A stretch of DNA of 64,000 nt, taken from assembly GCF_030697925.1 (NCBI RefSeq), contig NZ_JAUYOJ010000007.1:1-64000 (forward strand), written 5' to 3'. Positions 30,348-52,768 of this stretch are shown in pieces. This DNA is from Phenylobacterium sp. Lineage in GTDB: Bacteria > Pseudomonadota > Alphaproteobacteria > Caulobacterales > Caulobacteraceae. Position numbers and translations under genes: made by a program. The notes below the pieces were generated by a model. The model worked only from the letters and a program-made list of their open reading frames with translations. It made no database searches and was not told the DNA's origin. Within the stretch, counting starts at the first letter, position 1. Every line of letters begins with the position of its first letter.

Positions 30348-30803
30348 ATGCCGCGGGTGATAGTAGAGCGGGCGATGCCGGGCGCGGTGGCTGAGAGGGT
30401 CTGGTCTATCGCGCGGAAACTCACTGACTATCCGAAATTCATGGACCAGGTTCTGAGGGTTGAGGCTTGCGAATTCGAGGGCGCGGACTCCGCCACCTCC
30501 TGGGTGGTGCTGCTGAACGGCAATGAATTGCGCTGGATCGAGGCGGATGAGTATGACGAGAATGCTCGACGCATGACTTTTCGCCAGCTGGATGGCGATC
30601 TCGCAGAGTGGAATGGCTCGTTCCAGGCGATCAGTGATCCGCATGGCGTGATCGCCAAGTACGATGTCAATTTTGATCTAGGAATTCCGGCCCTGGCGAA
30701 CATCCTCCATCCCCTCGGCGAAGCCGCCATTCGTGCAAACTGCACTCAGATGCTTGAGGAGTTGGAGCGCAGAAGTCGAAACGCCCAGCAAGCAGATGCT
30801 TGA
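30348..30803 (+). CDS. SRPBCC/START-domain protein (polyketide cyclase-like)
   Basis: A 151-residue START-fold protein. VIVERAMPGAVAERVWSIA, then DYPKFMDQVLRVE and WVVLLNGNELRWIEADE, follow the COQ10/polyketide-cyclase pattern: an N-terminal strand, a helix, and an antiparallel sheet around a cavity. The ATG at 30348 follows a GCGAGGAC ribosome binding site. It is the first gene of the cluster and overlaps the reductase gene by 8 bp. It may cyclise or shield an ACP-bound intermediate. A dehydratase role is also possible. Confidence 0.85.
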   Translation: MPRVIVERAMPGAVAERVWSIARKLTDYPKFMDQVLRVEACEFEGADSATSWVVLLNGNELRWIEADEYDENARRMTFRQLDGDLAEWNGSFQAISDPHGVIAKYDVNFDLGIPALANILHPLGEAAIRANCTQMLEELERRSRNAQQADA

Positions 30804-31917
30804 CTATGACTGCGTCTTGATTTCCGGCGCGTCGGGGGCCGTGGGAGCCTTCGTCATCCGCGAACTGGCGAGGTCCTCGTCGCTGCCCCTCATCTGCCTT
30901 CTGAGAAGCCCGGCGTCACTTGCGCGGTTGACGGAAGCGGTGGGGTCGAGGTCGAGCCTCCTCGACCGCATTATTCCCGTCTACTGCGACCTCACCTCGG
31001 ACACGCAGGTCGCCGCGGCCCGGGAAGCGGTCGGATTGCGGCGCCGGTGCCTGGCGCTGCATTGCGCCGCGGAGGTCTCCTGGACGAAGCCCGAACGGCT
31101 CGCCGCGCCCATCAATGTCGAAGGCACGAGGCGCTTCGCGCAATTGGTGGTGACGATCAGCCGCGAGCGCCCGAGCCTGGTTTTCCTGTCGACGGCCTTC
31201 AGTGCGGAAGATCATCCGCCACGAAACGCCTACGAAGCCACAAAGCTGTTGGCGGAACGGCTGCTGGTGGATGAGTTCGCAACGCGGACCTATCTTGCCA
31301 TTCTGAAGTGCAGCCTCGTGGTCGGCGCGGCCGACGACGGATGGATGGCGCGCTTCAACGGTCTCTATCCGCTCATCCGCATCCTGGCCCTGGCCGAGGT
31401 GCCCTGCGTGATCGCGGAGCCACGCTATCTATTGGACACCACGCCCGTAGACTTCGTGTGGCGGCAGATGCAACTCGCCAGCGAGACCGTGGGCGAGGCG
31501 CGTCCGCTCCTGCGGCTCGTGGCGGGGGCTGGCCCTGACGCGTTGTCGATAGAGGAGGTGGTGAGCCTGACGCTGGATCGCGCGAACGCCGCCCGACGCG
31601 CGCACAACCTTCCTGACCTGCCCGAGATCTCCGTGCTGTCTGAGCGCAAATTCCGCTTCCTCATGAGCGCCTCCAAATCCTGGAATCTCGACCATCGCTT
31701 CGAGAAGGTCGAGCAGATCAGCGAGATCATGAACGGATATGTCGTCCACGGAGCGAGCGGGCGGCGGATCGTGCCCCAGGGACTGGGGGAAGGCTCGCCC
31801 CGTCCCGCGGACTACCTCCCGCGGGTGATCGACCACTGGATCGCGCGAAATCTCGACCGTGTGCTTCGGCACGCGACGCCGGACTGGCTCGTTCGAGACG
31901 AGGCCGGCGTCGCATGA
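30796..31917 (+). CDS. Thioester reductase-like SDR (NAD_binding_4/male-sterility type)
   Basis: A 373-residue extended SDR. The Rossmann motif SGASGAVG (G11-x2-G14-x2-G17) and the YEATK active site (Tyr146, Lys150) are intact. The LKCSLVVG and TTPVDFV motifs belong to thioester-reductase (TE-R) domains that release carrier-bound acyl chains as aldehydes or alcohols with NAD(P)H. The ATG at 30796 lies within the previous gene's 3' end. As ACP and KS genes follow, it probably reduces an ACP thioester, giving an aldehyde for transamination. Confidence 0.85.
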   Translation: MLDYDCVLISGASGAVGAFVIRELARSSSLPLICLLRSPASLARLTEAVGSRSSLLDRIIPVYCDLTSDTQVAAAREAVGLRRRCLALHCAAEVSWTKPERLAAPINVEGTRRFAQLVVTISRERPSLVFLSTAFSAEDHPPRNAYEATKLLAERLLVDEFATRTYLAILKCSLVVGAADDGWMARFNGLYPLIRILALAEVPCVIAEPRYLLDTTPVDFVWRQMQLASETVGEARPLLRLVAGAGPDALSIEEVVSLTLDRANAARRAHNLPDLPEISVLSERKFRFLMSASKSWNLDHRFEKVEQISEIMNGYVVHGASGRRIVPQGLGEGSPRPADYLPRVIDHWIARNLDRVLRHATPDWLVRDEAGVA

Positions 31918-31963
31918 TCTCCGAGTTCAAGGCGCGGGGGCCGCGCCATCGAAGGGACCTCAC

Positions 31964-32284
31964 ATGGACACGATGAAGCTGATCGCGCTGGCCTTGTTTG
32001 AGGAGTGCGGCATAGAGGCCGAACGCCTCACCCCCGAGGTCCATCTGCTGTCGGACCTCGGAATCGATAGTCTAGACCTGCTCAACGCCTCGTTCCGCAT
32101 TGAGAAGGATTGCGGCGTCAAGCTGCCCTTCCGAGACTGGCTCGCCCTAGAATACGGCGACACGGCGCCTGACCGCAGTCCCTTCTTGATTCGCGAGATC
32201 TGCGACTTCCTGGAGGCGGGGCGGTCGGCGGCAGGTCGCGGGCCGGAGTCGGAAGCCTTCGATACAAAACCCGCGCAGGCCTGA
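31964..32284 (+). CDS. Acyl carrier protein
   Basis: A 106-residue carrier protein. The phosphopantetheine site is Ser36 in LSDLGIDSLDLLN. Helices I-III are recognisable; the C-terminal 30 residues form an extension beyond a normal ACP (about 80 residues). ATG 31964 is chosen over an upstream in-frame start because the domain starts there. It is followed after 1 bp by the ketosynthase gene. It would carry the intermediate handled by the SRPBCC protein, reductase and KS. Confidence 0.93.
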   Translation: MDTMKLIALALFEECGIEAERLTPEVHLLSDLGIDSLDLLNASFRIEKDCGVKLPFRDWLALEYGDTAPDRSPFLIREICDFLEAGRSAAGRGPESEAFDTKPAQA

Positions 32285-32285
32285 C

Positions 32286-33515
32286 ATGAAGAGAGTCGCG
32301 GTCACAGGCATGGGATGCGTCTCGGCGCTGGGCAACGGCGTGCGTGAGACATGGTCCAGTGCGATCGCCGGCCAGGGCGGCGCGCGGCCGATCACCCTGA
32401 CCGTCGAGGGTGACAGGGCCTTCACGACAACAGCCGTGGTCGCTGCGCTGCGCTACGATCCCCTTCCGGCCCTTATGGCGCGCTTCGGGCGCAAGCCTAT
32501 TATCGCGGTCGACCGTTTCGCAAATCTCGCCGCCGCAGCAACCGCCGAGGCGCTCGATGAGGCAGGCTTGGGCGCGGGCTCCGCGCAGCTGCGGGATGCA
32601 GCTATTATGTGGGGCGCCTGTTCCGGCGGCCTGATCTCCATCGAGCAGGCCTATGAACGGATGTTCGCCCTAGGGCACCCAAACCCGCATCCGTTGACCG
32701 TGCCCCGTCTCATGGTGAGCGCGCCTGCGTCGCACATTTCCATTCTCTTCGGGGTGCGAGGCCTGTGTCTGTCGATTTCAAGCGCCTGCGCATCATCGGC
32801 TCACGCGATCGCCGAGGGCATGTATCTCATCCGTTCCGGCCGGGCTCAGACCGTCATCGCCGGTGGCAGCGATGCAAGTCTCAGCTATGGCGGCTTGCAG
32901 AGCTGGAAAGCGCTCCAGGCGATCTCCGAGGTCGCCTGCCGACCGTTCTCGAGAGACCGGGACGGCACCATCCTCGGCGAGGGGGCGGCAACCTTGATCC
33001 TGGAAGACGAGGCGGCGGCGCGGGAGCGCGGCGCCCACATCCTTTGCTACCTGACCGGCGCCGGCGCGACCTCCGACGCCAGCCACATGACGCAGCCCGA
33101 CGCCGAAAGCGCGGCGGCGGCCGTGAGGGCGGCCCATGCGGAGGCCGGCCTTCCCGTCGACGAGCCCATCTTGATAAGCGCTCACGGGACCGGGACCCTG
33201 CTCAACGATCGGATGGAGACCCAGGCCCTGCGCGAAGTCTACGGTCGCGCCCTGGACGCCTGCCGCGTGATGGCGACGAAATCCGCCCACGGCCACATGT
33301 TGGGCGCCGGCGGCGCCATGGAGGTCCTGTTGGGCGTTCAGGCGCTTATCCATCAAGAGGCCATTCCCACCCTCAACTTTCTCGACGAGGATTCCGAATG
33401 CCCGCTTCCCTTGGTGCTTGGACGCGAGGCGATCTCGTATCGCGCCCTGCTGTCCACCTCGTTCGCCTTCGGAGGCCTGAACTCGGCCCTGATCGCCCAG
33501 CTTCCGGAGACCTAG
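32286..33515 (+). CDS. Beta-ketoacyl-ACP synthase (FabF-like)
   Basis: A 409-residue condensing enzyme with the full Cys-His-His triad: Cys168 (SSACASSAHAI), His300 (SAHGTGTLLND) and His335 (KSAHGHMLGAGG). Length and the C-terminal STSFAFGGLNS motif match FabF-type KS. No acyltransferase or ketoreductase gene is in the cluster, so malonyl-ACP and further reduction would come from primary metabolism, or the KS performs a single condensation. It closes the first four-gene operon. Confidence 0.93.
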   Translation: MKRVAVTGMGCVSALGNGVRETWSSAIAGQGGARPITLTVEGDRAFTTTAVVAALRYDPLPALMARFGRKPIIAVDRFANLAAAATAEALDEAGLGAGSAQLRDAAIMWGACSGGLISIEQAYERMFALGHPNPHPLTVPRLMVSAPASHISILFGVRGLCLSISSACASSAHAIAEGMYLIRSGRAQTVIAGGSDASLSYGGLQSWKALQAISEVACRPFSRDRDGTILGEGAATLILEDEAAARERGAHILCYLTGAGATSDASHMTQPDAESAAAAVRAAHAEAGLPVDEPILISAHGTGTLLNDRMETQALREVYGRALDACRVMATKSAHGHMLGAGGAMEVLLGVQALIHQEAIPTLNFLDEDSECPLPLVLGREAISYRALLSTSFAFGGLNSALIAQLPET

Positions 33516-34064: not shown

Positions 34065-34793
34065 ATGCTTGTATCGGATAGACTCGACCAGAGTATTGGC
34101 GCTCATTTCAGGTCCGAGCACATCCAATCTCGCGCGAGGGCGCTGCAGGCCGACTTCCGCGTCAACGGCTTCTGCAAGATCCCCGGCTTCCTTCCAGACG
34201 CCGTCCGACCACTCCTGGACGCAGACATCAGTCAACACCTCGAACGCTGCGCCTCGAAGGACTTCATCCCGCTTGACGTGGGGTGGCCGCACCCGGGGCC
34301 GGACTGTTATGGTCAACCCCTGTCTGACGCACTCGCTACCGCCGTGGCATTGCCAAGTGCGCCAAGTCTGAGACGGCTGATCGGCGCAATTATGGGCGAC
34401 GGATCGGAAGCTTCTCCCGATCAGGTCTTCCTACCCCCCTTGGTCCAGGTCGCTGACGAGGCCCATGAGAGCGCGTGGAAGTGGGCGACGGCGCCCTGTT
34501 CGGTCACCTGGGTCTCACGGGCGCCCCGCCGTGGAAATGGCGGCGAGTTCCAGTTCATCGCTGCCGGCGCGAGCGCCGAGGGGCCAGATGCGATCTCGCG
34601 CCTACTCGCCAGTCGGCCGATTGAAAGCCACTACATTGAGGAAAACACCGCGTATCTGATCCGCGGTGATCAAAATCTCCATCGCGTGTCTCCGCTCAAG
34701 AACGGGGACATGCGGGTCGCCTTTTCATTTGAGTGCGCTCTAGCGCCCGCCACCTCGCGGGCCGGCGCACGCCAAAGCGCTCTTTCCACATAG
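34065..34793 (+). CDS. 2OG-Fe(II) oxygenase-fold protein (ArpA-like) with atypical metal site
   Basis: A protein of about 242 residues (ATG 34065; GTG 34050 also possible). The C-terminal half matches the ArpA-like 2OG oxygenase pattern: VTWVSRAPRRGNGGEFQFI, then AYLIRGDQNLHRVSPL with distal His206, then MRVAFSF. In the family, WHxD supplies the first His and Asp. Aligned on the VT and GGEF anchors, that segment reads WKWA (138-141), so both ligands appear lost. A nearby His134-Glu135 might substitute. It may be a non-canonical oxygenase or a non-catalytic binding protein. Confidence 0.65.
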   Translation: MLVSDRLDQSIGAHFRSEHIQSRARALQADFRVNGFCKIPGFLPDAVRPLLDADISQHLERCASKDFIPLDVGWPHPGPDCYGQPLSDALATAVALPSAPSLRRLIGAIMGDGSEASPDQVFLPPLVQVADEAHESAWKWATAPCSVTWVSRAPRRGNGGEFQFIAAGASAEGPDAISRLLASRPIESHYIEENTAYLIRGDQNLHRVSPLKNGDMRVAFSFECALAPATSRAGARQSALST

Positions 34794-34848: not shown

Positions 34849-35532
34849 ATGACAGCGGAAGCAGAAGCAACCACCACCCAAAATCTCTCCTATTACTCGG
34901 AGATGCGTGAGGGCGGCCGCAACATTTTCGAGATATGGGAAGAACATCTTCCATACAACGACTCGGTAACGCCCAGTATCTGGAGCATTGAATACAGAGA
35001 GTGGATCAGCCACAAGGTTCGCTCGCTGTGCGGGCATGATTTCTCAAAGCGCATTCTGTCGATCGGGTGCGGGAACGCGTTTGTGGAAGCCGACCTTTGC
35101 ACCGCCGGCTATTCCGTATCCGCCGTCGATGCCATGCCCGAAGCCGTGGCGATGGCGAGGCTCAAGGGCGTCGACGCCCGGATCTGTGATTTCTGGGATT
35201 GCCACACGGTCTTTCCTGACGGTTTTGACTTGGTCTATGCAGACGGGCTGTTGGGACACCTGCTGGATGCGCATTCGCTATTGGACGTGCTCAAAGCCTT
35301 CCGGCGTCTGCTAACGCCCGGGGGCCTCTTGCTGTTGTCGAACGACTCCGCCGGCAACGGGAGCATCGAGAGCCACCCCACGGTGCCGAACTTCTCCTAT
35401 GTCCACCACGACCAAATGGTGGCTGCGGGTCTGGCCGCGGGCCTCTTGAACGACTGCGTGATGAGCTTTCCCTACAGCCGACCGCTCACCGGTCAGCGCT
35501 GGCGTGCCGTCGCGGTGCTCCGGGAGCCCTAG
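34849..35532 (+). CDS. Class I SAM-dependent methyltransferase
   Basis: A 227-residue methyltransferase. Motif I is ILSIGCGNAF, the acidic strand VSAVDAMPEA follows, then DLVYADGLLGHLLDA and LLTPGGLLLLSNDS. The fold is complete and of normal size for small-molecule methyltransferases. The N-terminal EIWEEHLPYNDSVTPS region probably forms the substrate lid. Acceptor atom and substrate cannot be inferred. It lies 55 bp after the oxygenase-fold gene in the same direction. Confidence 0.9.
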   Translation: MTAEAEATTTQNLSYYSEMREGGRNIFEIWEEHLPYNDSVTPSIWSIEYREWISHKVRSLCGHDFSKRILSIGCGNAFVEADLCTAGYSVSAVDAMPEAVAMARLKGVDARICDFWDCHTVFPDGFDLVYADGLLGHLLDAHSLLDVLKAFRRLLTPGGLLLLSNDSAGNGSIESHPTVPNFSYVHHDQMVAAGLAAGLLNDCVMSFPYSRPLTGQRWRAVAVLREP

Positions 35533-37083: not shown

Positions 37084-37905
37084 ATGACCCTCTCGGGCGC
37101 TTGGCTTTTGGCGGAGCTCAAGGTGTTTGGGTTGGCCGTCATGGCGAACTGGCTGCGCTATGTCTTCGTGGCCGGCACCCTCTATCTCTTGCTCTACAAG
37201 ACACCTATCGGTCGACGAGGGTCTTACCGCGACCCATCCGCCGAGATTCCGAGGGGCCAGATTTATCGGGAGATCGCACTTTCCAGTGTCAGCTGCCTGA
37301 TCTTTTCCGTCTCAGCTGTCGCGATCCATGCCGTCAATCCGCTGGGTGTCACCCACATCTACGACGATGCTCACCGCTATGGCCTTCTGATCCTGCCCGT
37401 GACTCTCCTGGCGATTGTGGTGCTCTTCGACGCCTATTTCTACTTCACGCATCGGATGCTCCACGTCATCGGCGTCAAGCGCAGCACCCACTACAGACAT
37501 CATATATCCGTCTACCCGACACCGTGGGCCGCCCTCGCTTTCAGTGTGCCCGAGGCCGCCATCATCGCCCTGTTCTTCTTCCTGGTTGCGACCGCCTTTC
37601 CAATCTACATCTCCGTCTATCGGGCCTTCATCTGGATCGTTTTTATCCAGAGCGCACTCCATCACAGCAGCCACAAGATCTACCCCGACGGTTGGAAAAC
37701 CACGCCCATTCTCGGCTGGTGGACGACGGCGGACCATCACCATCTGCATCACAGGTTCGGGGCCTGCAATTTTGGCCTTTACTTCACGCTCTGGGACAGG
37801 GTCCTGGGGACGGAGCATCCCGACTATCTGAACGACCCCGCCCGGCGCGGTGCGGTCGCGCCCTATGATCCGGGGGTCAAGGCCAAGGCCGATGCCGGGG
37901 CCTGA
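37084..37905 (+). CDS. Membrane fatty acid hydroxylase / sterol desaturase family
   Basis: A 273-residue integral membrane di-iron enzyme. Hydrophobic segments flank three His boxes: H123-x3-H127 (THRMLH), HYRHH (136-140) and HHHLHH (218-223). The ATG at 37084 has a GGAG site 9 bases upstream. The family uses O2 to hydroxylate or desaturate lipid-like chains. It suggests the cluster product or intermediate has a hydrophobic chain handled at the membrane. It starts 232 bp after the aminotransferase, so it may have its own promoter. Confidence 0.9.
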   Translation: MTLSGAWLLAELKVFGLAVMANWLRYVFVAGTLYLLLYKTPIGRRGSYRDPSAEIPRGQIYREIALSSVSCLIFSVSAVAIHAVNPLGVTHIYDDAHRYGLLILPVTLLAIVVLFDAYFYFTHRMLHVIGVKRSTHYRHHISVYPTPWAALAFSVPEAAIIALFFFLVATAFPIYISVYRAFIWIVFIQSALHHSSHKIYPDGWKTTPILGWWTTADHHHLHHRFGACNFGLYFTLWDRVLGTEHPDYLNDPARRGAVAPYDPGVKAKADAGA

Positions 37906-37993: not shown

Positions 37994-39808
37994 ATGTGTG
38001 GCATTATCGGGATCGTAGCGTCATCAAATGTCAGCGGGCAGTTGCTGGAGAGTCTCCAGCGCCTCGAGTACCGCGGCTATGACTCTGCCGGCATAGCGAC
38101 CCTCTCCAACGGAGAGCTGGACCGTCGGCGCGCCAAGGGCAAGCTGCAGGCCCTGATTGATGTGGTCTCCACCTCGCCACTGGAAGGACAGGTCGGCATC
38201 GGACATACGAGATGGGCGACTCACGGGGCGCCCTCCGCCATCAATGCGCATCCCCACCTGTCAGGTCGTGTCGCGGTGGTGCACAACGGCATTATCGAAA
38301 ACTACGTCGCCCTGAAGGCCGACCTTATGGCGTCTGGCCACGTCTTTGAGAGCGACACCGACACCGAAGTCGTCGCGCATATGATTGAGGCCGCGCTGGC
38401 CTCCGGCGCAGCCCCACTTGAGGCGCTCAAGTCGACGCTGGACAGGCTCGAGGGCGCCTATGCGCTGGCCGTCATCGTCGAGGGCGAGAACGATCTCGTG
38501 ATGGGCGCCCGGCGCGGCAGCCCGCTCGTCGTCGGCTATGGCGACGGGGAGATGTTCATCGGCTCCGACGCCCTGGCGGTCGGGCCTTTCACAAATCGCA
38601 TCACCTATCTCGAAGAAGGCGACTATGTCGCGATCAACCGCGAGAGCGCGCGAATCTTCGACGCTGAGGGGAACAGCGTCGAACGCGCAAAGCATACCGT
38701 CGCGTCCTCCGCGGTCCTGGTGGAGAAGGGCAACTATCGCCACTTCATGGAAAAGGAGATTCATGAACAGCCCGACAGCAGCCAGCACACCCTTGCGCGC
38801 TACATCGATCCAGTCGCGGGCTCGCCTTCGGAGCACATACTGGATTTCACGGGCATTTCGCGGCTGCAGGTCGTGGCGTGCGGCACAGCCTACTATGCCG
38901 GCCTGGTGGGCAAATACCTGATCGAGGACATCGCCGGCATCCCGGTCGACATCGAGATCGCCTCCGAGTTCCGCTACCGCAATCCGGTCATGGATCCGGG
39001 GACCTTGACCGTCGCAATCTCGCAATCCGGCGAGACGGCGGATACGCTTGCGGCCCTGCGATGGTGTAAGGAGCGGGGCCTGCGGACCGCGGCGATCGTC
39101 AACGCGCACCAGTCCACTATGGCCCGCGAAGCCGATATCGTGCTTGGCACCTATGCCGGGCCGGAAATCTGCGTCCTGTCGACCAAGGCGTTCACGGCGC
39201 AGATCGTGGTGCTGATCTCCCTGGCGATCGCCGGCGCGCGCCAGCGTGGTCGCATCGACGTCGCGACGGAACGGCGGTACGTGCGGGAGCTTCTCGAGGC
39301 GCCGCGGCTGATCGCGCAGACCCTATCGATCGAACGCCAGATCGCGAACCTGGCGCAGGACCTGATGCGGTCCTGCGACATGCTCTTCCTCGGCCGGGGC
39401 GTGATGTATCCCATGGCGATGGAAGGCGCCTTGAAGTTGAAGGAGTCCAGCTACATCCACGCCGAAGGATGCGCCGCCGGCGAGATGAAGCACGGGCCAA
39501 TCTCGCTCATCGACGACGTGACGCCGGTCGTCGTTCTTGCACCTTCTGACGAGCTCTTCGATAAGACGATGTCCAACCTGCGCGAAGTGATCGCCCGAAG
39601 CGGACCAGTCACCATGATCACGGACGCAGAAGGCGCTGCTCGTGCGCCTTCCGAGGTGCGCGTCATCATCGTCCCGACGGGGCCCAAGCTCATCAACGCG
39701 TTGATCTATGCGGTGCCGCTCCAGCTGATCGCCTACCATATCGGCGTTTGCAAAGGGACGGACGTCGATCAACCCCGAAATCTAGCGAAGTCCGTCACTG
39801 TGGAATAA
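37994..39808 (+). CDS. glmS: Glutamine-fructose-6-phosphate aminotransferase (isomerizing), GlmS
   Basis: A 604-residue complete GlmS. The N-terminal glutaminase has Cys2 (MCGIIGIVA), RLEYRGYDSAG, and HTRWATHGAPS. Two SIS domains follow, with ACGTAYYAG and SQSGETADTL. The final HxGxxKxxA-like KSVTVE C-terminus is preserved. It makes glucosamine-6-phosphate from fructose-6-phosphate and glutamine. Inside a biosynthetic cluster it may supply amino sugar or act as a resistant duplicate of an antibiotic target. Whether the genome has another glmS is not visible here. Confidence 0.95.
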   Translation: MCGIIGIVASSNVSGQLLESLQRLEYRGYDSAGIATLSNGELDRRRAKGKLQALIDVVSTSPLEGQVGIGHTRWATHGAPSAINAHPHLSGRVAVVHNGIIENYVALKADLMASGHVFESDTDTEVVAHMIEAALASGAAPLEALKSTLDRLEGAYALAVIVEGENDLVMGARRGSPLVVGYGDGEMFIGSDALAVGPFTNRITYLEEGDYVAINRESARIFDAEGNSVERAKHTVASSAVLVEKGNYRHFMEKEIHEQPDSSQHTLARYIDPVAGSPSEHILDFTGISRLQVVACGTAYYAGLVGKYLIEDIAGIPVDIEIASEFRYRNPVMDPGTLTVAISQSGETADTLAALRWCKERGLRTAAIVNAHQSTMAREADIVLGTYAGPEICVLSTKAFTAQIVVLISLAIAGARQRGRIDVATERRYVRELLEAPRLIAQTLSIERQIANLAQDLMRSCDMLFLGRGVMYPMAMEGALKLKESSYIHAEGCAAGEMKHGPISLIDDVTPVVVLAPSDELFDKTMSNLREVIARSGPVTMITDAEGAARAPSEVRVIIVPTGPKLINALIYAVPLQLIAYHIGVCKGTDVDQPRNLAKSVTVE

Positions 39809-41207: not shown

Positions 41208-41762
41208 CTACATCTCTTCGAACCTGGCGGCCAGAAAGCCTAGGTCATCCCCCGTCGCGGCCGCCGCGACCGACCAGTTCTGCATCGCCCGGATCACTTG
41301 GCGTTGCCCGGATGGGCCCATCGTGTCGGGAATCTCGCCGGGCAGGTCTTCGAGGACGCGTCGGCCAAAGGCCAGAACGGCCTCATGCAAGACGTCAAAT
41401 GACACCTGACGCTGGTCGAACCCCATCGCCTCACGCACCGCCGCGCCGCTCAATCCGAACGCCACATAGCCGTGTTCGAGCGCATAGGCCAATCGGTGCG
41501 CGGGGCCCACCTCAGACGCCGTGCCGGTGAGCAGGGCGTCAACTTCCTGCAGCTTCTCCGCGATTTCGTAGCGAAGTGCGACAAGATACTGGTCGCGCCC
41601 TTCGACGCCCTCCACGTCTTCCAGGATGCTTCGAAAGTGCGAGAGCGCCAGCCAGTAGGCCTCGATCGCGGTGGCGTAGTTCGCCGAATAGATGACCCGG
41701 CTCGCCAAGAGCTTCGACGCGGCGCCCTGAACCTTGGGCTCGTCCTTATCCACTATCGTCAC
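41208..41762 (-). CDS. Hypothetical all-helical protein in nucleotidyltransferase operon
   Basis: A 184-residue, predominantly helical soluble protein, not recognised. It contains LHFRSILEDVEGVEGRDQYL-like helices (LALSHFRSILEDVEG), AYALEHGYVAFGLSGAAVRE and LHEAVLAFGRRVLEDLPG. The start is GTG 41762, 2 bp after the nucleotidyltransferase stop. A helical partner next to a minimal nucleotidyltransferase recalls MNT/HEPN pairs, but no HEPN RxxxxH motif is seen. It may be a subunit or chaperone of the preceding enzyme. Confidence 0.55.
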   Translation of the reverse strand: MTIVDKDEPKVQGAASKLLASRVIYSANYATAIEAYWLALSHFRSILEDVEGVEGRDQYLVALRYEIAEKLQEVDALLTGTASEVGPAHRLAYALEHGYVAFGLSGAAVREAMGFDQRQVSFDVLHEAVLAFGRRVLEDLPGEIPDTMGPSGQRQVIRAMQNWSVAAAATGDDLGFLAARFEEM

Positions 41763-44002: not shown

Positions 44003-45114
44003 CGCGACGCGGGCGCGGTCTGGGGACGTCGGGCGGCCCCAAAGGAGCCGAGGAACTCGCGCGAAGGCCGTCCAGGACGCCCATAGACCTTAGCCCGGTA
44101 TTCCAGCTCCAGTTCGGCGTAGTGGGTCTGATCGCCGACCAGAGCGTGGTTTCGTTCGAGACGTTCCAGTCCGGCCGCGCCCGACGGCGCACCTGGAATC
44201 TCGGCGAGGCGAGGAGACGAGCGGCCATAGATTCTGTCGACAAGATCCAGCGAACTCTCGACGAAGGCGCGCTTGCCCGCTTCCGTCGACGCACCCTCCA
44301 GATAGAAATGGCTCATGAAGTCCGCCCTCAGGTCGCTATCCTCGGGCGGCAGCCGTTCGAGATAGGTCAGCAACCATTTTCGCCGCAGGTTGGTGACACC
44401 CTGGAGGGCGATATAGGCCGCCATCTGGGTGAGCAGGTTCTCGCGCGCGAGATCCACGGCCCGATCGAGTTCGCCTGCGCTCCAGGCGCCCATGAGATCC
44501 AGTAGGACCGAAAAGTCCGAGGCGTTCCAGCGATAGGCAAGGTAGGCGTAATGGGCCTTCGGAACCCGGGCCAGCAGATTGTTCAGCCGATCACCGTTCT
44601 GCAGCGACACCTGGTTGAAGAACCTGTGCATCAGGTTCTCTTCTCGCTCGCTGAGATATTTGGTCAGCAGGATCGGATGGCTGATCGCATACTGAAAGAT
44701 TTCTGAGACTCGATCCAAAAGCGAATTGACGTCTTCGAAAGTGATGTACTCGACGTCCACCTTAATCCCCGTCCCGGGAACGACCGTGTGAATGATATAG
44801 ATCAACTCGTCATCTAAGGCCGAATGGATGATCGATCGGCTCTTGCCGATGACGCGGTGATGTTCGCCGGGGAGGATCTCCGAGGGACGCCGAAGTCTAT
44901 CCGTCACGACATAGGCGTCGATATCGGAGTATTGATTGCCGATCCCCTCCACCAAGGTGCCCGCCGCAAGGACAATGTCATCCGGCTTGGCGTAGCATTG
45001 AGACAGGATGTACGCGTGCGGCACATGCACCTGGCCGTCTAGCAGGACCAGTTGAGCCCGCTGCTCGCCGTTTGAGACCCCTCCCAGTCGGTCCTGGGTT
45101 TGACTGTCGTTCAC
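43999..45114 (-). CDS. Nucleotidyltransferase-fold protein with three acidic residues
   Basis: A 371-residue protein. The core reads VEGIGNQYSDIDAYVV (D64-x-D66), and a later strand GIKVDVEYITFED supplies a third acid (Asp120, with Glu122). This completes the triad of Pol-beta-like nucleotidyltransferases. A long helical C-terminal domain follows. The start is GTG 45114, whose bases overlap the stop of the amidotransferase (GTGA). It would transfer a nucleotidyl group to a hydroxyl or phosphate of a small molecule. The family is otherwise unknown to me. Confidence 0.65.
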   Translation of the reverse strand: MNDSQTQDRLGGVSNGEQRAQLVLLDGQVHVPHAYILSQCYAKPDDIVLAAGTLVEGIGNQYSDIDAYVVTDRLRRPSEILPGEHHRVIGKSRSIIHSALDDELIYIIHTVVPGTGIKVDVEYITFEDVNSLLDRVSEIFQYAISHPILLTKYLSEREENLMHRFFNQVSLQNGDRLNNLLARVPKAHYAYLAYRWNASDFSVLLDLMGAWSAGELDRAVDLARENLLTQMAAYIALQGVTNLRRKWLLTYLERLPPEDSDLRADFMSHFYLEGASTEAGKRAFVESSLDLVDRIYGRSSPRLAEIPGAPSGAAGLERLERNHALVGDQTHYAELELEYRAKVYGRPGRPSREFLGSFGAARRPQTAPASR

Positions 45115-45950
45115 GCAAAGACTCCCGACAGGTCCGCCGTCCCGGGGCTCGTGGCCTCGGCCCTCGCCCTGCAGGCCACGCCAAAGCGCTCTAGCAGCGC
45201 GCGGTTCATCGGCTGGTCCTCGACGTGCCACTCCGGATGCCACTGCACCGCTAATGCGAAGCTCTTCGCCGACGCGACCCTTATGGCCTCGACACTGCCA
45301 TCGGAGCTCCGCGCTTCGACGATCAGGTCACGCCCAAGGCGATCGATGGCCTGCTGGTGCAGCGAATTGACCGGAACGCGTCGAGGATCGACCCCCGCTT
45401 CGAGGGCGATCGCTTCCAGCCAACCGTTCGGCGTGCACTCGACGTCATGGGCGGGCTTATACTTGTCGCCCTGGGTCGCGACCCCCTTTGGCGCCCTGTG
45501 ATCAAGCTTGCCGGGCAAGGTGTGGACCGCCTGGTGCAGGGTGCCACCGGCAACGCAGTTGAGCTCCTGGGCCCCGCGACAGATGCCGAGGAGAGGCACG
45601 CCAAGGGTGATCGCCAGGCCGATCATCGGAAGCGTCGTGGCGTCTCGGGCGGGATCGTGGTGCGTGCCCGGCGCGCTGGGCGTCCCGTCGTAGAGGCTCG
45701 GCTGCACCATGGAAGGGCTGCCGGTCAGCACTAGGCCGTCAAGCCGGGCCAGCAAGGCGCGCATGTTCTCCGGCTGACCGCAACTGCCGTCTCCAAGCGC
45801 CGGGACCAGCACGGGGTTGACCCCCGCATATACAACCAGCGCCCGCACATAGGGATCGAACACCGAGTGGTGCACCTCGGCGTCCCAAGGGCTCAGGACC
45901 GAACACGACACGCCGACGATCGGCATTGAAGACAAGGCGCTCTTCGACAT
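45111..45950 (-). CDS. Class I glutamine amidotransferase-like, gamma-glutamyl hydrolase (PuuD type)
   Basis: A 279-residue peptidase C26 protein. The nucleophile Cys sits in LLGICRGAQELN, and the catalytic His-x-Glu is in VQWHPEWH. VLTGSPSMVQPSLYDG and a VNSLHQQAIDRLG segment match PuuD/gamma-Glu-GABA hydrolases. It starts at ATG 45950; a longer frame enters the divergent promoter region. It heads the reverse operon. It could cleave a gamma-glutamyl protecting group from an amine, or deliver ammonia. Confidence 0.9.
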   Translation of the reverse strand: MSKSALSSMPIVGVSCSVLSPWDAEVHHSVFDPYVRALVVYAGVNPVLVPALGDGSCGQPENMRALLARLDGLVLTGSPSMVQPSLYDGTPSAPGTHHDPARDATTLPMIGLAITLGVPLLGICRGAQELNCVAGGTLHQAVHTLPGKLDHRAPKGVATQGDKYKPAHDVECTPNGWLEAIALEAGVDPRRVPVNSLHQQAIDRLGRDLIVEARSSDGSVEAIRVASAKSFALAVQWHPEWHVEDQPMNRALLERFGVACRARAEATSPGTADLSGVFA

Positions 45951-46208: not shown

Positions 46209-47027
46209 ATGACCTTGGACGGCGAATTCAACGGCGTGGAACGCAGCCTTATGCTGTTGAAGCCCGATGGCGCTCGCTCGGCGGCCGTCCGGAAGGACCT
46301 GCTCGACGGACTGGCCTCGAAGGGGCTCCAGATCCAGGCCGAACGCATCGTCCACCTCAGCGAAGACGAGATTGTCCAGCTGTGGCCGATGTTCAGGTCA
46401 CCCGCCCACGCGATCATGCGCGAGTTCTATTTCCGCTACATGCGGGAGGGCGTGTGCGTCGCCTTTCTGGTCAGTGGCGCGCGCGCCGTCGAGGACTGTT
46501 GCGAGGTGAAACACAGTCTGCGCGCGAAATACGAGGCGTGCGCCTTTGAAAACGCCCTGCATTGTCCGTCAGACGCCTACGAGCGCGACATCAATCTGGA
46601 GACACTGTTCTCGATCCAGGTGCCGCAGAGCGCCTTGAACTCCCCGCCAGAGGACAATCGGGTCGGTTTTCACGGAAAGGCGGCGGGCGCCGGTCCATCC
46701 GATTTCCGGGCCATGGTTGCGCGGATATGGGCGGACAAGGAGCGCGGTGGATGGCCGGCCACGTTCGTGGCGAAGGCCGCCGGCCGATACGACGTGGTTG
46801 TGCTGCCCGGCGACCCGAACCCCATCGACTACGGCATCTGCGTCCTTCACGACCATCTGGATTTGCCGCTTGAGACCGCCATGCGTCTCTACATCGAGTC
46901 CGAAGTGCGGCGCGGCGCCGCTGTAAGAAGCGGCGAGCATGATGAGATCGCCGACCTAGCGGCCATGTTGAAGGACAAGGGCCTGCGGGTCGTTGTGCGC
47001 GAGCGAGCCGCGCTTTCCGAGTCATGA
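46209..47027 (+). CDS. Nucleoside-diphosphate-kinase-like protein with C-terminal extension
   Basis: A 272-residue protein (ATG 46209 after a GGGGG-rich site). Residues 10-135 follow the NDK fold: SLMLLKPDGARS (Lys18 as in LxKPD), a GLQIQAERIVHLS strand-helix, VAFLVSGARAVEDC, and NALHCPSDAYERDI with His118 at the phosphohistidine position. The usual RxxMGxT substrate segment is altered (HSLRAKYEA). A C-terminal 130-residue domain (WPATFVAKAAGRYDVVVLPGD) is unlike NDK. It may phosphorylate or transfer phosphate to a pathway intermediate. Its stop overlaps the next gene (ATGA). Confidence 0.7.
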   Translation: MTLDGEFNGVERSLMLLKPDGARSAAVRKDLLDGLASKGLQIQAERIVHLSEDEIVQLWPMFRSPAHAIMREFYFRYMREGVCVAFLVSGARAVEDCCEVKHSLRAKYEACAFENALHCPSDAYERDINLETLFSIQVPQSALNSPPEDNRVGFHGKAAGAGPSDFRAMVARIWADKERGGWPATFVAKAAGRYDVVVLPGDPNPIDYGICVLHDHLDLPLETAMRLYIESEVRRGAAVRSGEHDEIADLAAMLKDKGLRVVVRERAALSES

Positions 47028-48430: not shown

Positions 48431-48455
48431 CATATTGCATGGGGAGAAGACTTTC

Positions 48456-49700
48456 ATGCTACCGACCAATTATACGAAGAATACAGCACCGGTACATGCT
48501 CACCTTGTTAGCGGGCAAGGCGCGCGCGTGTCTGATGTCGGCGGCAATGAATACATAGACTTCTGTTCTCAAACGCTGAACATAAATCTCGGTCAGTGTC
48601 ATCCAGTGATCCAAGCGGCCGTGTCGGAACAGCTTGGAAAGCTGACCTACGCCTCCTCGCGCTTCTCAAGTGATATCGCCGATCGCCTGCACGCAAAGCT
48701 TGTCGCCATCACGCCGTCGCCCCTGGCGCGGGTCAACCTCTCGAGCGTGACGGGCAGCCTGGCCAACGAGTGCGCGATCAAGGCCGTGCGAAAGAAGACC
48801 GGCAAGAGCACCACCATCTCGCGAATGCACAGCCATCTGGGCCAATCCGCTGAGTCCATGAGGATCAGCGGCAAGCATTGGGAGAACACCTACCTCGGCG
48901 AGAGGAATACGAAGTACTTGCCCGCACCGTACTGCTTCCGATGCCCGTTTGGCCAGACGGCTAATAGCTGCAATTCGGAGTGCCTGGATGGCCTTGAAGG
49001 CATCCTCCGCGACAGCGGCGACGACATCAACTGCATCATCATGGAGCCAGTGATGATGGATGCCGGCGTCCTAGCGCCGCCGAAGGCCTACCATGAGCGG
49101 GTACGCCAGTTCTGCGATGAGCACCACATCCCGCTCATCTGGGACGAGATTCAAACCGCCTTCGGCTGGCTAGGCACCACCTTCGCGATGGATGTCTATG
49201 GGGTTGTGCCGGACATCTTGAGCCTGGGAAAGGGCCTCGGGGCGGGCCTGCCGATCGCGGCGACCATCATGACCGAGGAATATGACGTCCTCGCCTATGG
49301 CGAGCACGAATTTACGTCGGGCGCGAATGTGTTGTCCTGCGCCGCCTCTCTGGCGATGATCGATTACCTTGAGACGTCGGACATCCTTCCGGCTGTCGTC
49401 CGCAAGGGAGCCTGGTTGCGCGGCGCCCTGGAAAAGCTGAGCGAGAAGCATCCCTGCATCGGTGACGTCCGCGGGATTGGACTGATGTTGGGCATCGAGA
49501 TCGTCGACCCGAAGACCGGCGCGCCAGACGGCGAGAAGGCGCTAGGCATCTTCCGTGAGATGCTGTCGCATGGCGTTATTCTGCGCATCAGCAAGGTCGG
49601 CGAGCACAGCAATGTCCTGCAGCTAAAGCCGCCGCTCGTCATCACCGAGGACGACTTGGTCGAGGTTGTCGACAAGCTGGACCTGGTCCTTTCCAACTGA
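48456..49700 (+). CDS. Class III PLP aminotransferase
   Basis: A 414-residue omega-aminotransferase-type enzyme. GQGARVSDVGGNEYIDFCSQ opens the fold, PLP contacts IWDEIQTAFGWLG are present, and Lys259 lies in SLGKGLGAGLP. A Cys-rich insertion (PYCFRCPFGQTANSC) occurs, known in some 4-aminobutyrate/diamine aminotransferases. The ATG at 48456 follows GGGGAGAAG; the upstream TTG is unlikely. It would transfer an amino group to or from a terminal aldehyde, consistent with the thioester reductase in the cluster. Confidence 0.9.
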   Translation: MLPTNYTKNTAPVHAHLVSGQGARVSDVGGNEYIDFCSQTLNINLGQCHPVIQAAVSEQLGKLTYASSRFSSDIADRLHAKLVAITPSPLARVNLSSVTGSLANECAIKAVRKKTGKSTTISRMHSHLGQSAESMRISGKHWENTYLGERNTKYLPAPYCFRCPFGQTANSCNSECLDGLEGILRDSGDDINCIIMEPVMMDAGVLAPPKAYHERVRQFCDEHHIPLIWDEIQTAFGWLGTTFAMDVYGVVPDILSLGKGLGAGLPIAATIMTEEYDVLAYGEHEFTSGANVLSCAASLAMIDYLETSDILPAVVRKGAWLRGALEKLSEKHPCIGDVRGIGLMLGIEIVDPKTGAPDGEKALGIFREMLSHGVILRISKVGEHSNVLQLKPPLVITEDDLVEVVDKLDLVLSN

Positions 49701-49703
49701 ACC

Positions 49704-51188
49704 ATGGTGATCCGCGAAATGCTGCAAAGCGCGGCGCACGACGTCTTTGCGGACCTCGGCCGCGAAATCCTGACCAAGCGCCCATTGGGTCGACCGCTGA
49801 TCGTCTTTATCAGCGGCGTCGATGCGAGCGGCAAGACAAGGTTTGCGGAGCGGCTCGCCGGCCGCCTCGGCGAATTGGGAGAGCGCGTGGAGGTCATTCA
49901 TGTCGACGACTTTCACCGTCCGCGGTCGGAGCGATATCAACGGGAGCAGGCCGCGCCCGCGGATGCGTATTATTGCGACAGCTTCGATATCCAGCATTTG
50001 AAGACCGAAATCCTCGAGCCAATCCGCCGCGAAGGCGCGTTAGTGGCAAGCCACCTGCATCTCGATCTGGTGACCGACGAGATGTCGGTCCGCCGCGACT
50101 ACAACATTTCGCCGGAGAGTATTGTCGTACTCGAGGGCGTGTTCCTGATGCGCCCCGAACTGGACGGGTTGTGGGACGTCTTCATCCATATTGACGTGCC
50201 CCTGAAAACAGCGCTCGACCGCGCAATCGTCCGCGACGGCGATCGCCTGGGCAAAGTGACCGTCGAGCGATATGCGACCAAGTACTTCGCCGCCCAAGCC
50301 CGCTATCTGGCTGTCAGTCGCGCCACGGCGCGCGCGGATATCCGAGTCGACAACAGCGATTATGCGGCGCCCCGCATCGCACGGTCCCGACGACCGGAAG
50401 GGCCGGACGAGCCGCCGCTCTGGGGCGCGGAGACACGGCTTTTCAAGGGGGACGGGCCGCCCCGGGAATTCGACGCCGTCTGCTTCGATCTCTGGAACAC
50501 CCTGGTGCCGTTTCCCGACACGCTGAAGCGGGAAGCTTTCGCGAAGACCGTCGAACTCATAGGTCTGCCGGAGGCGCGCCTGGCTCCGGTCTGGGCTGAA
50601 CATCGCCAAAGCCGTGAGACGGGCGACCTGGGACGCCATTTGCGCAGCCTGCTCACGGACCTGCAGGTGCGCAATGCGGAAGAGGTCTCCGCCGAGGTGA
50701 TGCGCCATCGATCGGAGATTCACGGAAGGGCCTATCGGGTGCTGGACAGCGACGCCGAAATCACGCTCCGCATTCTGCGTGGCGCGGGCTTTCGTCTGGC
50801 GGTCGTATCAAACTGCACATCCGATGTCCCTGAAATGCTCGCGGGCAGTGCGCTAGGAGGACTTTTCGACGCGCGGCTGTTTTCCAGTTCAGTCGGGCTC
50901 CTCAAGCCCGACCCGAGAATATTCCGGCTGGCGGCGGAGCGCCTTGGCGTCACCCCGGAGCGTTGCCTCTACGTCGGCGATGGCGACGATAGCGAACTCG
51001 AGGGCGCCGCCAGTATCGGCATGACCTGCGTGATGCTGGACACCGGTCGCCCGCGCACATGGAAGGGCCCGAAGGTCTCGCGGCTCTCGGATATCCTCGG
51101 CCCCATCCTCCCTGGGTTTGAACGTGGATCGGCGTCCTCCCGGGTGGGCCCGTCGCCTGACGGCGCACAGACCGTCGCGCAATTCTGA
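49704..51188 (+). CDS. Uridine kinase-like P-loop kinase fused to HAD-family domain
   Basis: A 494-residue fusion. The N-terminal 1-230 is a uridine-kinase/phosphoribulokinase-type P-loop kinase: Walker A GVDASGKT (38-45), HVDDFHRPRSERY and VLEGVFLMRPEL. The C-terminal 255-480 is HAD: CFDLWNTLV, VVSNCTSD, LLKPDPRIF and YVGDGDDSELEGA. The HAD nucleophile Asp is present, but the usual general-acid Asp two residues later is Trp. So it may not be a standard phosphatase. The fusion links phosphorylation and dephosphorylation or phosphoryl transfer on one protein. Starts 3 bp after the aminotransferase. Confidence 0.82.
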   Translation: MVIREMLQSAAHDVFADLGREILTKRPLGRPLIVFISGVDASGKTRFAERLAGRLGELGERVEVIHVDDFHRPRSERYQREQAAPADAYYCDSFDIQHLKTEILEPIRREGALVASHLHLDLVTDEMSVRRDYNISPESIVVLEGVFLMRPELDGLWDVFIHIDVPLKTALDRAIVRDGDRLGKVTVERYATKYFAAQARYLAVSRATARADIRVDNSDYAAPRIARSRRPEGPDEPPLWGAETRLFKGDGPPREFDAVCFDLWNTLVPFPDTLKREAFAKTVELIGLPEARLAPVWAEHRQSRETGDLGRHLRSLLTDLQVRNAEEVSAEVMRHRSEIHGRAYRVLDSDAEITLRILRGAGFRLAVVSNCTSDVPEMLAGSALGGLFDARLFSSSVGLLKPDPRIFRLAAERLGVTPERCLYVGDGDDSELEGAASIGMTCVMLDTGRPRTWKGPKVSRLSDILGPILPGFERGSASSRVGPSPDGAQTVAQF

Positions 51189-51199
51189 AGAGTGTGTCC

Positions 51200-52768
51200 A
51201 TGTCCCGCGAGGCAAGTCCGATTCATCTCATCCTGCCCATGCAGCCGACCCCGGACGGACGGCTTCACATCGGGCACGCCGCGGGCCCCTATCTACGCGC
51301 GGACGCGCTCGCGCGACGCCTGAGGCGCGATGGCGAGATCGCCGTCGTCGCCACAGGTCCCGACGCCTACGAGAACTGGGTGCTTATGGAGGCGCGCCAC
51401 GCCGGCGAAGACCCGCATGAAACCTGCAGGCGCATGACGGCGGGCATCCGGCAAGATCTGACCCATCTCGGCGTCGAGCCCGACATCTGGATCGATCCGA
51501 TGTCGGATGGTGATCGCGCCGACTATATCGCCCTGCATGAGCAATTTCTCCGCGAGTTGTCGGATCGAGGCCGAGCCACGCTTTCCCCGGAGCACGTACC
51601 GGCCTCGCAGGGCACCGGTGAGTATCTGACCGGACCGTGGATCTCGGGCCTGTGTCCCGAGTGCGACAAGCCGGTGGCGGGAAACTCGTGCGTGGCCTGT
51701 GGCGGAAGCTTCCAGCCGAGCGAGGTGGTCGAGCCCCGCTCCCGCTTCGACGGAAGCGGCATCGATTGGGTCGCGAAGGATAGCTGGTTTGCCGAAGCGC
51801 CCTCGAAGGAGGCCGTGCTGGCGGTTCTGAGATCGGCCGGCGTCGCCGAAGCATTCATCGACATCGCCGCGCGGCACATGAGCCGCGCGGGCCTTCGCGC
51901 ACGACTGTCTCAACCGAGCTCCTGGGGCATGAGGAGCCGGATGGTCGATCCCGACTGTGTCCTGAGCAATTCCTACTATCTCTATTGCCTGTTCTGCGGT
52001 GCGCGCGCAGCCGCCCGTCTCGGTGAGCCGGCGAATCTCCTCGCGCGATCGTCGCGCGCGACGGTCGTCGCGCTGTTCGGCAAGGATAATGCGGGCGCAG
52101 GCCTGGTGGTCGCCTCAACGCTCGCGCTGAACAGCGACGCGTTCCGGGGGTTCGACGCCATTGCCGTCAACCACCTGCTCCATTTCGATGGCAGCAAGTG
52201 CTCCAAGAGCCGCAAGCACGGGATCCTGGTCAGCCAGCTGGTGGAAGAGACCTCGGTTTCCAGCGACGAGCTGAGGTTCGCGCTTGCACAGGCGCCGTTG
52301 GAGCATGAGCCCCATGACCTTCAAACGAACGAGATCATTTCGACCATCAATGATTTGAGGCGTTGGCGCGTCGAGCGTCTGGCGCCGCTTCTCGCCGGAG
52401 CGGGCGACACGCCGGATCGGGCGGTCTGCGCGCAAGCGAGGGACGTGATCGCCGCACAGGCCTCGGTCCTCGAACCGCGGCGGTTGCACCTGGCGGAGGC
52501 GACCAGCCTCCTGAAGTCCTGGATGACCGACACCAGGTTTGAGGACTCGCCCGGCGCGCGGCGCGCATGGCTCCAAGCCTTCGCCTTGTTGGCCGAGCCC
52601 GTGGCGCCGCAGCTCGCAGGGGCGGTGTGGCGCAGCCTCGGCCTTACGGGCCGTCCCACCACCAGCGCCCTGTCGGATCCTGGCGAGGTTACGAAACTTG
52701 AGGCTGACGCGCCTCTCCCATTGCACCCCTCCGAGCTTGAACCCGTCGCTCGCCGCGCTGCGGTCTAA
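51200..52768 (+). CDS. Methionyl-tRNA-synthetase-like class I ligase
   Basis: A 522-residue class I aminoacyl-tRNA synthetase of MetG type. The HIGH motif (DGRLHIGH, 23-26) and KMSKS-type loop ([12 protein letters not shown], about 334) are present. A zinc knuckle C152/C155/C164/C167 sits in the connective insertion. Size and the shortened C-terminal helical region differ from a full bacterial MetRS. As a cluster gene it may activate an amino acid for transfer to a hydroxylamine, alcohol or amine, as MetRS-like enzymes do in hydrazine-forming pathways. Alternatively it is a resistant tRNA synthetase. Confidence 0.85.

What the first reader, a model, noticed from the sequence alone, without database searches (positions are those of the whole stretch)
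30348..52768. Unassigned biosynthetic gene cluster mixing carrier-protein, nucleotide-type and tRNA-synthetase-like enzymes
Seen: ACP, KS with full Cys-His-His triad, thioester reductase, SRPBCC, three PLP enzymes, a flavoprotein, an NDK-like protein, two nucleotidyltransferase-like proteins, a kinase/HAD fusion, a MetRS-like ligase, GlmS and an exporter, many overlapping by 4 bp. Known: thioester reductases give aldehydes, and class III aminotransferases aminate them. Inference: the product joins a short acyl or amine chain with an amino acid and phosphate/nucleotidyl activation. I recall no characterised cluster with this set, and no NRPS or modular PKS is present.
Basis: partly seen in the sequence, partly recalled or inferred. 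Interest (0 to 1): 0.88.

Follow-up and report, generated by a model that had tools for sequence, protein, structure and literature searches.

The report
Cupin-less MetRS-ligase biosynthetic gene cluster
A probably acquired 23-kb gene cluster in a bacterium appears to make an unknown small molecule by linking an amino acid to an oxidised amine with a recycled tRNA-charging enzyme, but without the partner protein that normally turns such links into nitrogen-nitrogen bonds, so it may lead to a new kind of natural product.

Summary
Comparison resolves the cluster. (A) NDK-like, flavoprotein, class III PLP, kinase-HAD and MetRS-like genes form a five-gene core also found, with two genes swapped, in Streptomyces sp. 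BK340. (B) SRPBCC, DUF6001 and DUF6031, in 3 of 8 loci with a thioester reductase, recur in Streptomyces relatives. (C) GlmS and a methyltransferase lie near the closest MetRS-like relatives. The MetRS-like protein belongs to the hydrazine-synthetase ligase family; 71 of 80 related loci encode the N-N-forming cupin, but the window and its four nearest relatives do not. Published work shows that such a ligase without its cupin yields an O-aminoacyl hydroxylamine that shifts to the N-acyl form. I infer an aminoacyl-hydroxylamine (hydroxamate-type) metabolite rather than a hydrazine; the product and the flavoprotein's N-hydroxylase role are not shown. A second DapD (86% to the other copy) and a diverged GlmS suggest target duplication or precursor supply. 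No described cluster with this set surfaced in the paper searches; MIBiG could not be searched.

The parts
30348..30803 (+). SRPBCC (Polyketide_cyc) protein; module B
   Evidence: Pfam PF03364 7.7e-10; homologue near DUF6031 in 8 of 8 fetched Streptomyces-family loci
30796..31917 (+). stand-alone thioester-reductase-type protein; module B
   Evidence: PF07993 1e-25; TIGR01746 below cut-off; 29-33% homologue in 3 of 8 loci
31964..32284 (+). acyl carrier protein
   Evidence: PF00550 6e-8; LGIDSLD
32286..33515 (+). FabF-like ketosynthase with Cys-His-His
   Evidence: TIGR03150 1.6e-98, below cut-off; motifs
34065..34793 (+). HalD/BesD-like Fe/2OG-fold protein with the first metal ligand lost (H-x-G replaced by K-W-A); start codon uncertain
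   Evidence: PF23169 5.7e-18; alignment to HalD and BesD
34849..35532 (+). SAM methyltransferase
   Evidence: PF08241 2.4e-10; 41% homologue near the MetRS-like gene of Nocardia ninae L011
35667..36851 (+). class I/II aminotransferase, DapC-like; start codon uncertain (longer TTG start at 35652)
   Evidence: TIGR03538 4.9e-118, below cut-off; next best match in the host genome 30%
37084..37905 (+). membrane fatty-acid hydroxylase with His boxes
   Evidence: PF04116 1.3e-19; motifs
37994..39808 (+). GlmS (glutamine--fructose-6-phosphate transaminase)
   Evidence: TIGR01135 778 bits, cut-off 418; only full GlmS found in the 90.4% complete genome; 64-66% to five genus copies that are 76-91% alike
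39954..41183 (+). MFS exporter
   Evidence: PF07690 1.3e-44
41208..41762 (-). DUF6031; module B
   Evidence: PF19496 4.3e-39; next to DUF6001 in 8 of 8 fetched loci
41765..42820 (-). DUF6001, nucleotidyltransferase-like by motif, possibly degenerate (by eye); module B
   Evidence: PF19464 2.3e-28; SDIDL motif; weak terminal-uridylyltransferase match E 0.027
42830..44002 (-). PLP enzyme (MocR/EhuR-like aminotransferase domain, no room for a wHTH)
   Evidence: PF00155 4e-12; NF052286 2.3e-68, below cut-off
43999..45114 (-). NT2, polymerase-beta-type nucleotidyltransferase motif, no Pfam family
   Evidence: 48% homologue beside a C26 homologue on a Neorhizobium plasmid; motif; model unusable, pLDDT 38
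45111..45950 (-). peptidase C26 (gamma-glutamyl hydrolase type)
   Evidence: PF07722 2e-59
46209..47027 (+). core A: NDK-like protein with about 130 extra residues; Lys, Asn and His of NDK kept; start uncertain
   Evidence: PF00334 3.9e-7; homologue in L013
47024..48430 (+). core A: two-dinucleotide flavoprotein (Nox), remote relative of N-hydroxylating monooxygenases
   Evidence: no Pfam match; 43% in L013; hhalign probability 92% against class B N-hydroxylases; plain profile test negative
48456..49700 (+). core A: class III PLP enzyme (AT3)
   Evidence: PF00202 5.4e-77; 35% in L013, about 30% in L011 and L012 where a C-terminal extension looks kinase-like by eye
49704..51188 (+). core A: uridine-kinase/PRK-like kinase fused to HAD domain (motif DLWNT)
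   Evidence: PF00485 and PF00702; 42% homologue in L013
51194..52768 (+). core A: MetRS-like amino-acid ligase, cupin-less clade
   Evidence: PF09334 2.5e-30; tree with L011-L014
52788..53633 (+). second DapD copy, 19 bp after the ligase gene
   Evidence: PF14805; 86% to the other DapD of the genome

Best explanation
A genomic-island biosynthetic cluster whose core (46209-52768) links an alpha-amino acid to a hydroxylamine. Proposed route: the flavoprotein (replaced by an acyl-CoA-dehydrogenase-fold flavoprotein in the Nocardia and Frankia clusters) oxidises a primary amine to a hydroxylamine; the MetRS-like enzyme adenylates an amino acid and transfers it to the hydroxylamine oxygen, without tRNA; because no zinc cupin is present, the O-acyl hydroxylamine is not rearranged to a hydrazine but becomes an N-acyl hydroxylamine (N-hydroxy amide), which is kept as the product scaffold. 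The kinase and class III PLP enzyme prepare one building block (phosphorylation followed by elimination or transamination). The KS, ACP, thioester reductase and DapC-like genes may add an acyl-derived aldehyde or amine, and the methyltransferase and membrane hydroxylase tailor it. The MFS protein exports it. GlmS and DapD are extra enzymes of cell-wall precursor pathways, serving as resistant targets or for precursor supply. Shown: gene content, homology, recurring modules, no cupin found, second DapD copy. Inferred: every chemical step and the product.
For: MetRS-like with HIGH, the lysine of KCSKS, zinc knuckle, and an Asp (57) aligned with the Asp of E. coli-type MetRS that binds the amino acid (the role of that Asp is recalled). 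Of 80 related loci, 71 have a cupin (E below 1e-10), 72 a class B N-hydroxylase (E below 1e-25), 69 both. The window groups with L011, L012 and L013 (support 0.98; with L014 0.999), nested in the cupin-bearing family under midpoint rooting; none of these five has a cupin hit in the stretches held, and the host genome's best cupin hit is partial, E 8.7e-7, against 1e-39 for a real partner. PMC8664883 (passages): the MetRS-like part alone gives an unstable O-acyl ester, tRNA-independently, which converts to the N-acyl product when no functional cupin is there. The five-gene core recurs in L013. L011 and L012 carry a different oxygenase-type flavoprotein in the cluster. A Met-Gln pair at MetRS positions 16-17 in all five clade rows and none of the other 75 rows suggests a different amino acid.
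Against: The flavoprotein has no PF13434 match, and a profile of 12 clear N-hydroxylases misses it (E 8.3), though it finds L013 at 5e-4; the profile-profile match could reflect only a shared FAD/NADPH fold. The structure model was too poor to use. The NDK-like and kinase-HAD genes are not explained in detail; the second HAD aspartate is Trp, so phosphatase activity is doubtful. Another enzyme could rearrange the ester, and every clade genome searched has some cupin hit elsewhere. Core A and module B are seen together only in this window.
Confidence: 0.38

Rival explanations
1. The cluster does make an N-N bond: another protein in the cluster, or a cupin encoded elsewhere, rearranges the aminoacyl hydroxylamine to a hydrazine, as in the pyrazomycin or s56-p1 pathways.
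For: The nearest family is the hydrazine-synthetase ligase family; cupins work in trans in vitro (PMC8664883, passages); the host genome has two weak cupin hits, the clade genomes of L012-L014 have hits of 1.6e-8 to 8.6e-8 and Nocardia ninae one of 2.9e-19.
Against: No cupin hit in the window even at E 5, none in the stretches around the four nearest relatives; host hits are partial and weak.
Confidence: 0.2
2. The MetRS-like enzyme makes an ordinary amide or ester and the flavoprotein is not an N-hydroxylase; the set makes a peptide-like or phosphorylated antimetabolite.
For: The flavoprotein has no N-hydroxylase family match; L011 and L012 have no class B N-hydroxylase; NDK and kinase genes point to phospho-chemistry.
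Against: L011 and L012 carry another oxygenase-type flavoprotein; L014, sister of the clade, has a clear class B N-hydroxylase directly after the ligase gene.
Confidence: 0.25
3. Two independent clusters lie side by side: core A plus DapD, and a left/minus-strand module B cluster with its own product.
For: Core A stands without module B in L013; module B stands without the MetRS-like gene in the Streptomyces-family loci.
Against: In the window module B is split between the left group and the minus-strand group; the methyltransferase and GlmS of the left group have homologues near the MetRS-like gene in L011; GC3 is similar throughout.
Confidence: 0.2
4. The MetRS-like, GlmS and DapD genes are only resistance copies or misplaced housekeeping genes beside a small lipid-amine cluster.
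For: DapD is 86% identical to the other copy; GlmS passes the equivalog cut-off.
Against: The MetRS-like protein is below the cut-off of each methionine--tRNA ligase model listed by NCBIfam and groups with biosynthetic-type ligases.
Confidence: 0.05

Closest known systems
MetRS/cupin hydrazine synthetases (PyrN, Spb40, Tri28, RHS1 system, DobE)
   Same: MetRS-like ligase with ATP motifs, near a flavoprotein and PLP enzymes; same ligase family by the gene context of its relatives
   Different: No cupin domain or gene found; flavoprotein is not matched by the usual Lys/Orn N-hydroxylase family; clade-specific pocket residues
Five-gene core of Streptomyces sp. BK340 (L013; no paper found)
   Same: NDK, AT3, Nox, kinase-HAD and MetRS-like, 28-43% identical, same strand
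   Different: ABC-exporter genes (by eye) instead of MFS; AT3 and Nox swapped; no homologue of GlmS, DapD, KS, ACP, TR, DUF6001 or DUF6031 in the 21 kb
Nocardia ninae / Frankia AiPa1 MetRS-like clusters (L011, L012)
   Same: MetRS-like 42-43%, extra GlmS, AT3; L011 also methyltransferase 41% and an extra DapF
   Different: Acyl-CoA-dehydrogenase-fold flavoprotein instead of Nox; AT3 with a C-terminal extension; no NDK or kinase-HAD homologue. L011 appears not to be the described dob cluster, which has a MetRS/cupin fusion (PMC13061610, passages). L012 is a whole 16-kb contig and may be cut
DUF6001/DUF6031 clusters in the family of Streptomyces sp. BK340
   Same: DUF6001, DUF6031, SRPBCC in 8 of 8 fetched; TR and AT3 homologues in 3 of 8, the same three with a desaturase-like gene by eye
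   Different: They add dCTP-deaminase/PPDK-like and phosphodiesterase genes; no MetRS-like hit in the 20-kb stretches

Membership tests
MetRS/cupin hydrazine synthetase system | MetRS-like ligase with HIGH and ATP-binding lysine motif | tested here: met
MetRS/cupin hydrazine synthetase system | zinc cupin, fused or neighbouring | tested here: not met
   no hit in window at E up to 5; host genome best 8.7e-7, partial
MetRS/cupin hydrazine synthetase system | flavin N-hydroxylase in the cluster | tested here: inconclusive
MetRS/cupin hydrazine synthetase system | tRNA-independent aminoacyl transfer to a hydroxylamine | not testable with these tools
   needs an enzyme assay
Lys/Orn N-hydroxylase family (PF13434) | match to family profile | tested here: not met
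   no Pfam match at E 0.1; own 12-sequence profile E 8.3; hhalign 92% shows only remote kinship
BesD/HalD Fe/2OG halogenases or hydroxylases | H-x-G or H-x-D plus distal His metal ligands (motifs recalled) | tested here: not met
   K-W-A at the first site, distal His kept
GlmS | equivalog score and N-terminal Cys | tested here: met
   9 of 161 positions invariant in eight other copies are changed
DapD | family match | tested here: met
Nucleoside diphosphate kinase | family score and catalytic Lys, Asn, His | tested here: inconclusive
   Pfam above cut-off, NCBIfam 26.8 of 155 bits; residues kept; activity unknown
Thioester reductase domain (TIGR01746) | curated score and Rossmann/YxxxK motifs | tested here: inconclusive
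   55 of 213 bits; motifs present
Azoxy pathway (VlmA, VlmL, VlmO/B type) | seryl-tRNA transferase and hydrazine-forming membrane enzymes | not tested
   no dedicated search made

The most novel reading that the evidence does not exclude
A branch of the hydrazine-synthetase ligases has dropped the N-N-forming cupin and turned its former shunt product, an N-aminoacyl hydroxylamine, into the backbone of a new class of antimetabolites aimed at cell-wall precursor synthesis, with GlmS and DAP-pathway enzymes recruited independently as resistant copies in unrelated bacteria.
Probability: 0.12. Interest if true: 0.85.

Novelty: new variant of a known kind. Interest (0 to 1): 0.58.

Why it matters
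If the ligase works without a cupin, one enzyme family would feed two kinds of chemistry, hydrazines and aminoacyl hydroxylamines, and the presence or absence of the cupin would predict which. The five-gene core is small enough to rebuild in a laboratory host, so the question is directly testable. Extra GlmS and DapD/DapF copies give a hint about the target or the precursors before any compound is known.

Tried and rejected
Rejected: (1) tabtoxin-like pathway (recalled; suggested by DapD and DapC-like genes): named no beta-lactam synthetase among the cluster's proteins; no dedicated search. (2) Azoxy lipid pathway: the KS/ACP/TR/aminotransferase part would fit, but the small core in L013 has no such acyl part nearby. 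(3) The window GlmS inherited together with the ligase: it is 38% to the Nocardia/Frankia cluster copies but 64-66% to five genus copies, so it was recruited separately. Five of its nine unusual positions (of 161 invariant in eight other copies) are also among the 40 changed in both Nocardia and Frankia copies, where about 2 would be expected at random; too few sequences to rely on, and one of the eight comparison genomes (L013's) gave two of the copies.

Led nowhere: AlphaFold models of the flavoprotein (pLDDT 43) and of NT2 (pLDDT 38); no fold search was made with them. PDB sequence searches for DUF6001, NT2 and the flavoprotein gave no usable match. Plasmid search with DUF6001: no match. 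Paper searches for the domain names and for the gene set: no paper. The phylogeny paper on MetRS/cupin substrate pockets is not held, so the amino acid was not predicted. The flavoprotein hit at 3e-6 used a profile that already contained its L013 relative and is not independent; the clean test is.

Rows dropped: three short MetRS-like sequences (L053, L055, L057) from the tree; of 130 MetRS-like relatives the tool kept the best 80; of 12 genomes with a DUF6001 match in the family of L013 only the 8 strong ones were fetched; the six flanking stretches were fetched but not analysed.
Full report
What is there. Between 30348 and 53633 there are 21 intact genes in a left plus-strand group (SRPBCC to MFS), a minus-strand group (C26, NT2, PLP, DUF6001, DUF6031) and a right plus-strand group (NDK-like, flavoprotein, AT3, kinase-HAD, MetRS-like, DapD). 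The catalytic motifs I looked for are present, with two exceptions: the HalD-like protein has lost the first iron-binding His, and the HAD domain has Trp in place of the second Asp of motif I, here and in its Streptomyces relative.

It looks like an acquired island. GC3 is 0.67-0.82 in the cluster (0.88 in DapD) against 0.91-0.95 in five flanking genes. The flavoprotein is found in 1 of 101 genomes of the genus, the window's own. A DUF3363 protein with a relaxase domain (below cut-off), a recombinase and an integrase-like protein (integrase just below cut-off) lie to the left.

Core A. A scan of one genome for each of 84,980 species with a three-sequence MetRS-like alignment found 130 relatives, of which the best 80 were kept. 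I mapped all 21 window proteins onto them. Streptomyces sp. BK340 (L013) carries the NDK-like, AT3, flavoprotein, kinase-HAD and MetRS-like genes in a row, 28-43% identical, behind ABC-exporter genes recognised by eye. It is the only one of the 80 with this set.

The missing cupin. The MetRS-like protein belongs with the ligases of hydrazine synthetases. With iterated profiles, 71 of 80 loci have the cupin, 72 have a class B N-hydroxylase and 69 have both. Nine lack a cupin hit: L011-L014, four short or truncated contigs (L017, L033, L041, L057), and L081. In a tree of 80 sequences the window groups with L011-L013 (support 0.98) and then L014 (0.999), nested in the cupin-bearing family under midpoint rooting, so the loss looks derived. 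The window has no cupin hit. In whole genomes the best hits are 8.7e-7 (host, partial), 1.6e-8 to 8.6e-8 (genomes of L012-L014) and 2.9e-19 (Nocardia ninae, L011), against 1e-39 for the true partner in the L015 genome. Nocardia ninae is known to have a separate MetRS/cupin fusion, DobE (PMC13061610, passages), which may be its stronger hit, so a cupin in trans cannot be excluded there. All five clade rows, and none of the other 75, carry Met-Gln at positions 16-17, near the amino-acid pocket, so the activated amino acid probably differs.

What the ligase should do. In PMC8664883 (passages read) the MetRS-like part makes an O-aminoacyl hydroxylamine without tRNA; without a working cupin this turns into the N-acyl product. 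PMC11705231 (passages) reviews the family. That the window's enzyme stops at that stage is my inference.

The flavoprotein. It has no Pfam match. Its homologue L009 passes the Lys/Orn oxygenase cut-off. Profile-profile comparison with 12 clear N-hydroxylases gives 92% probability over 295 columns, 17% identity, but a plain profile search misses the window protein (E 8.3) and finds L013 at 5e-4. N-hydroxylation is therefore possible, even likely, but not established. In L011 and L012 the cluster holds instead an acyl-CoA-dehydrogenase-fold protein whose best PDB matches are flavin monooxygenases and similar proteins, which fits an oxygenation step done by unrelated enzymes.

Kinase and PLP enzyme. 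AT3 lies near a kinase gene in the window and L013, and has a C-terminal extension that looks kinase-like by eye, without a Pfam match, in L011 and L012 (Pfam on L011 only). Class III enzymes include phospholyases paired with kinases (recalled), and a phospholyase (6tor) is among the PDB matches, behind epimerases, decarboxylases and aminotransferases. Phosphorylation followed by elimination is a guess.

Module B. DUF6001 is rare in the host's phylum: 3 of 398 genomes match, only the window's own above the cut-off. In the family of L013's genome (Streptomycetaceae by the title of L013) 12 of 394 match, 9 above the cut-off, 8 strongly. In all 8 stretches fetched DUF6031 lies next to it and an SRPBCC homologue close by; in 3 of 8 there are also AT3 and thioester-reductase homologues, and a desaturase-like gene by eye. 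In the window the same set is split between the left group and the minus-strand group, which ties these two together.

GlmS and DAP genes. L011 and L012, alone among the 80 loci, have GlmS near the ligase; both genomes have another GlmS. L011 has an extra DapF after the ligase, 38% to the other copy. The window has an extra DapD after the ligase, 86% to the other copy. Its GlmS is 64-66% to five genus copies that are 76-91% alike, and is the only full one found in the incomplete genome. Similar kinds of genes were thus recruited from different sources. Target duplication and precursor supply both fit. In the Nocardia and Frankia copies 40 of 161 positions invariant in eight other copies are changed in both, including the KHGP loop, which argues for an altered function there.

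Verdict. A real, so far unassigned cluster of recognisable enzyme kinds in a new combination, with a ligase from a cupin-less branch of the hydrazine-synthetase family. The product remains unknown.

Noticed in passing
window 11433-15208: Gabija-type pair: GajA (E 6e-208) and GajB (E 6e-221) by PADLOC models, in a low-GC stretch left of the cluster.
   Followed up: partly
window 15259-17318: EcoRV-type restriction endonuclease (minus strand, Pfam 1.5e-9) beside a C5 cytosine methylase (plus strand), probably a restriction-modification pair.
   Followed up: partly
window 17328-29219: Mobile-element genes: two resolvase/recombinases, an integrase-like protein (just below cut-off), DUF2840 and a DUF3363 protein with a weak relaxase match.
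   Followed up: partly
window 53703-54281: ROS/MucR-type regulator directly after DapD on the other strand; possible cluster regulator.
   Followed up: no
window 926-2134: An acyl-CoA-dehydrogenase-like frame outside the cluster matches the profile of the L011/L012 flavoproteins at 1.8e-15.
   Followed up: no
L014:9992-16085 (Telmatospirillum MAG): Even smaller set without a cupin hit: MetRS-like ligase, clear class B N-hydroxylase, a WD-repeat-like protein (by eye) and an EamA-like exporter (by eye).
   Followed up: partly
L008:2936-23375 and L007:7406-21036: Rhizobial plasmid clusters with NT2 homologues: in L008 two annotated pyrF genes, a dTMP-kinase and an ATP-grasp gene; in L007 similar genes by eye. 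Might be a nucleotide-type product with a duplicated target.
   Followed up: no
L137-L144: A cluster family with dCTP-deaminase/PPDK fusion, dCTP-deaminase-like, phosphodiesterase, DUF6001 and DUF6031 genes (families tested on L138 only); in two of eight stretches a CTP-synthase-like gene by eye.
   Followed up: partly
window 34065-34793: HalD/BesD-like protein without the first metal ligand, a possible non-catalytic relative kept in a cluster.
   Followed up: partly
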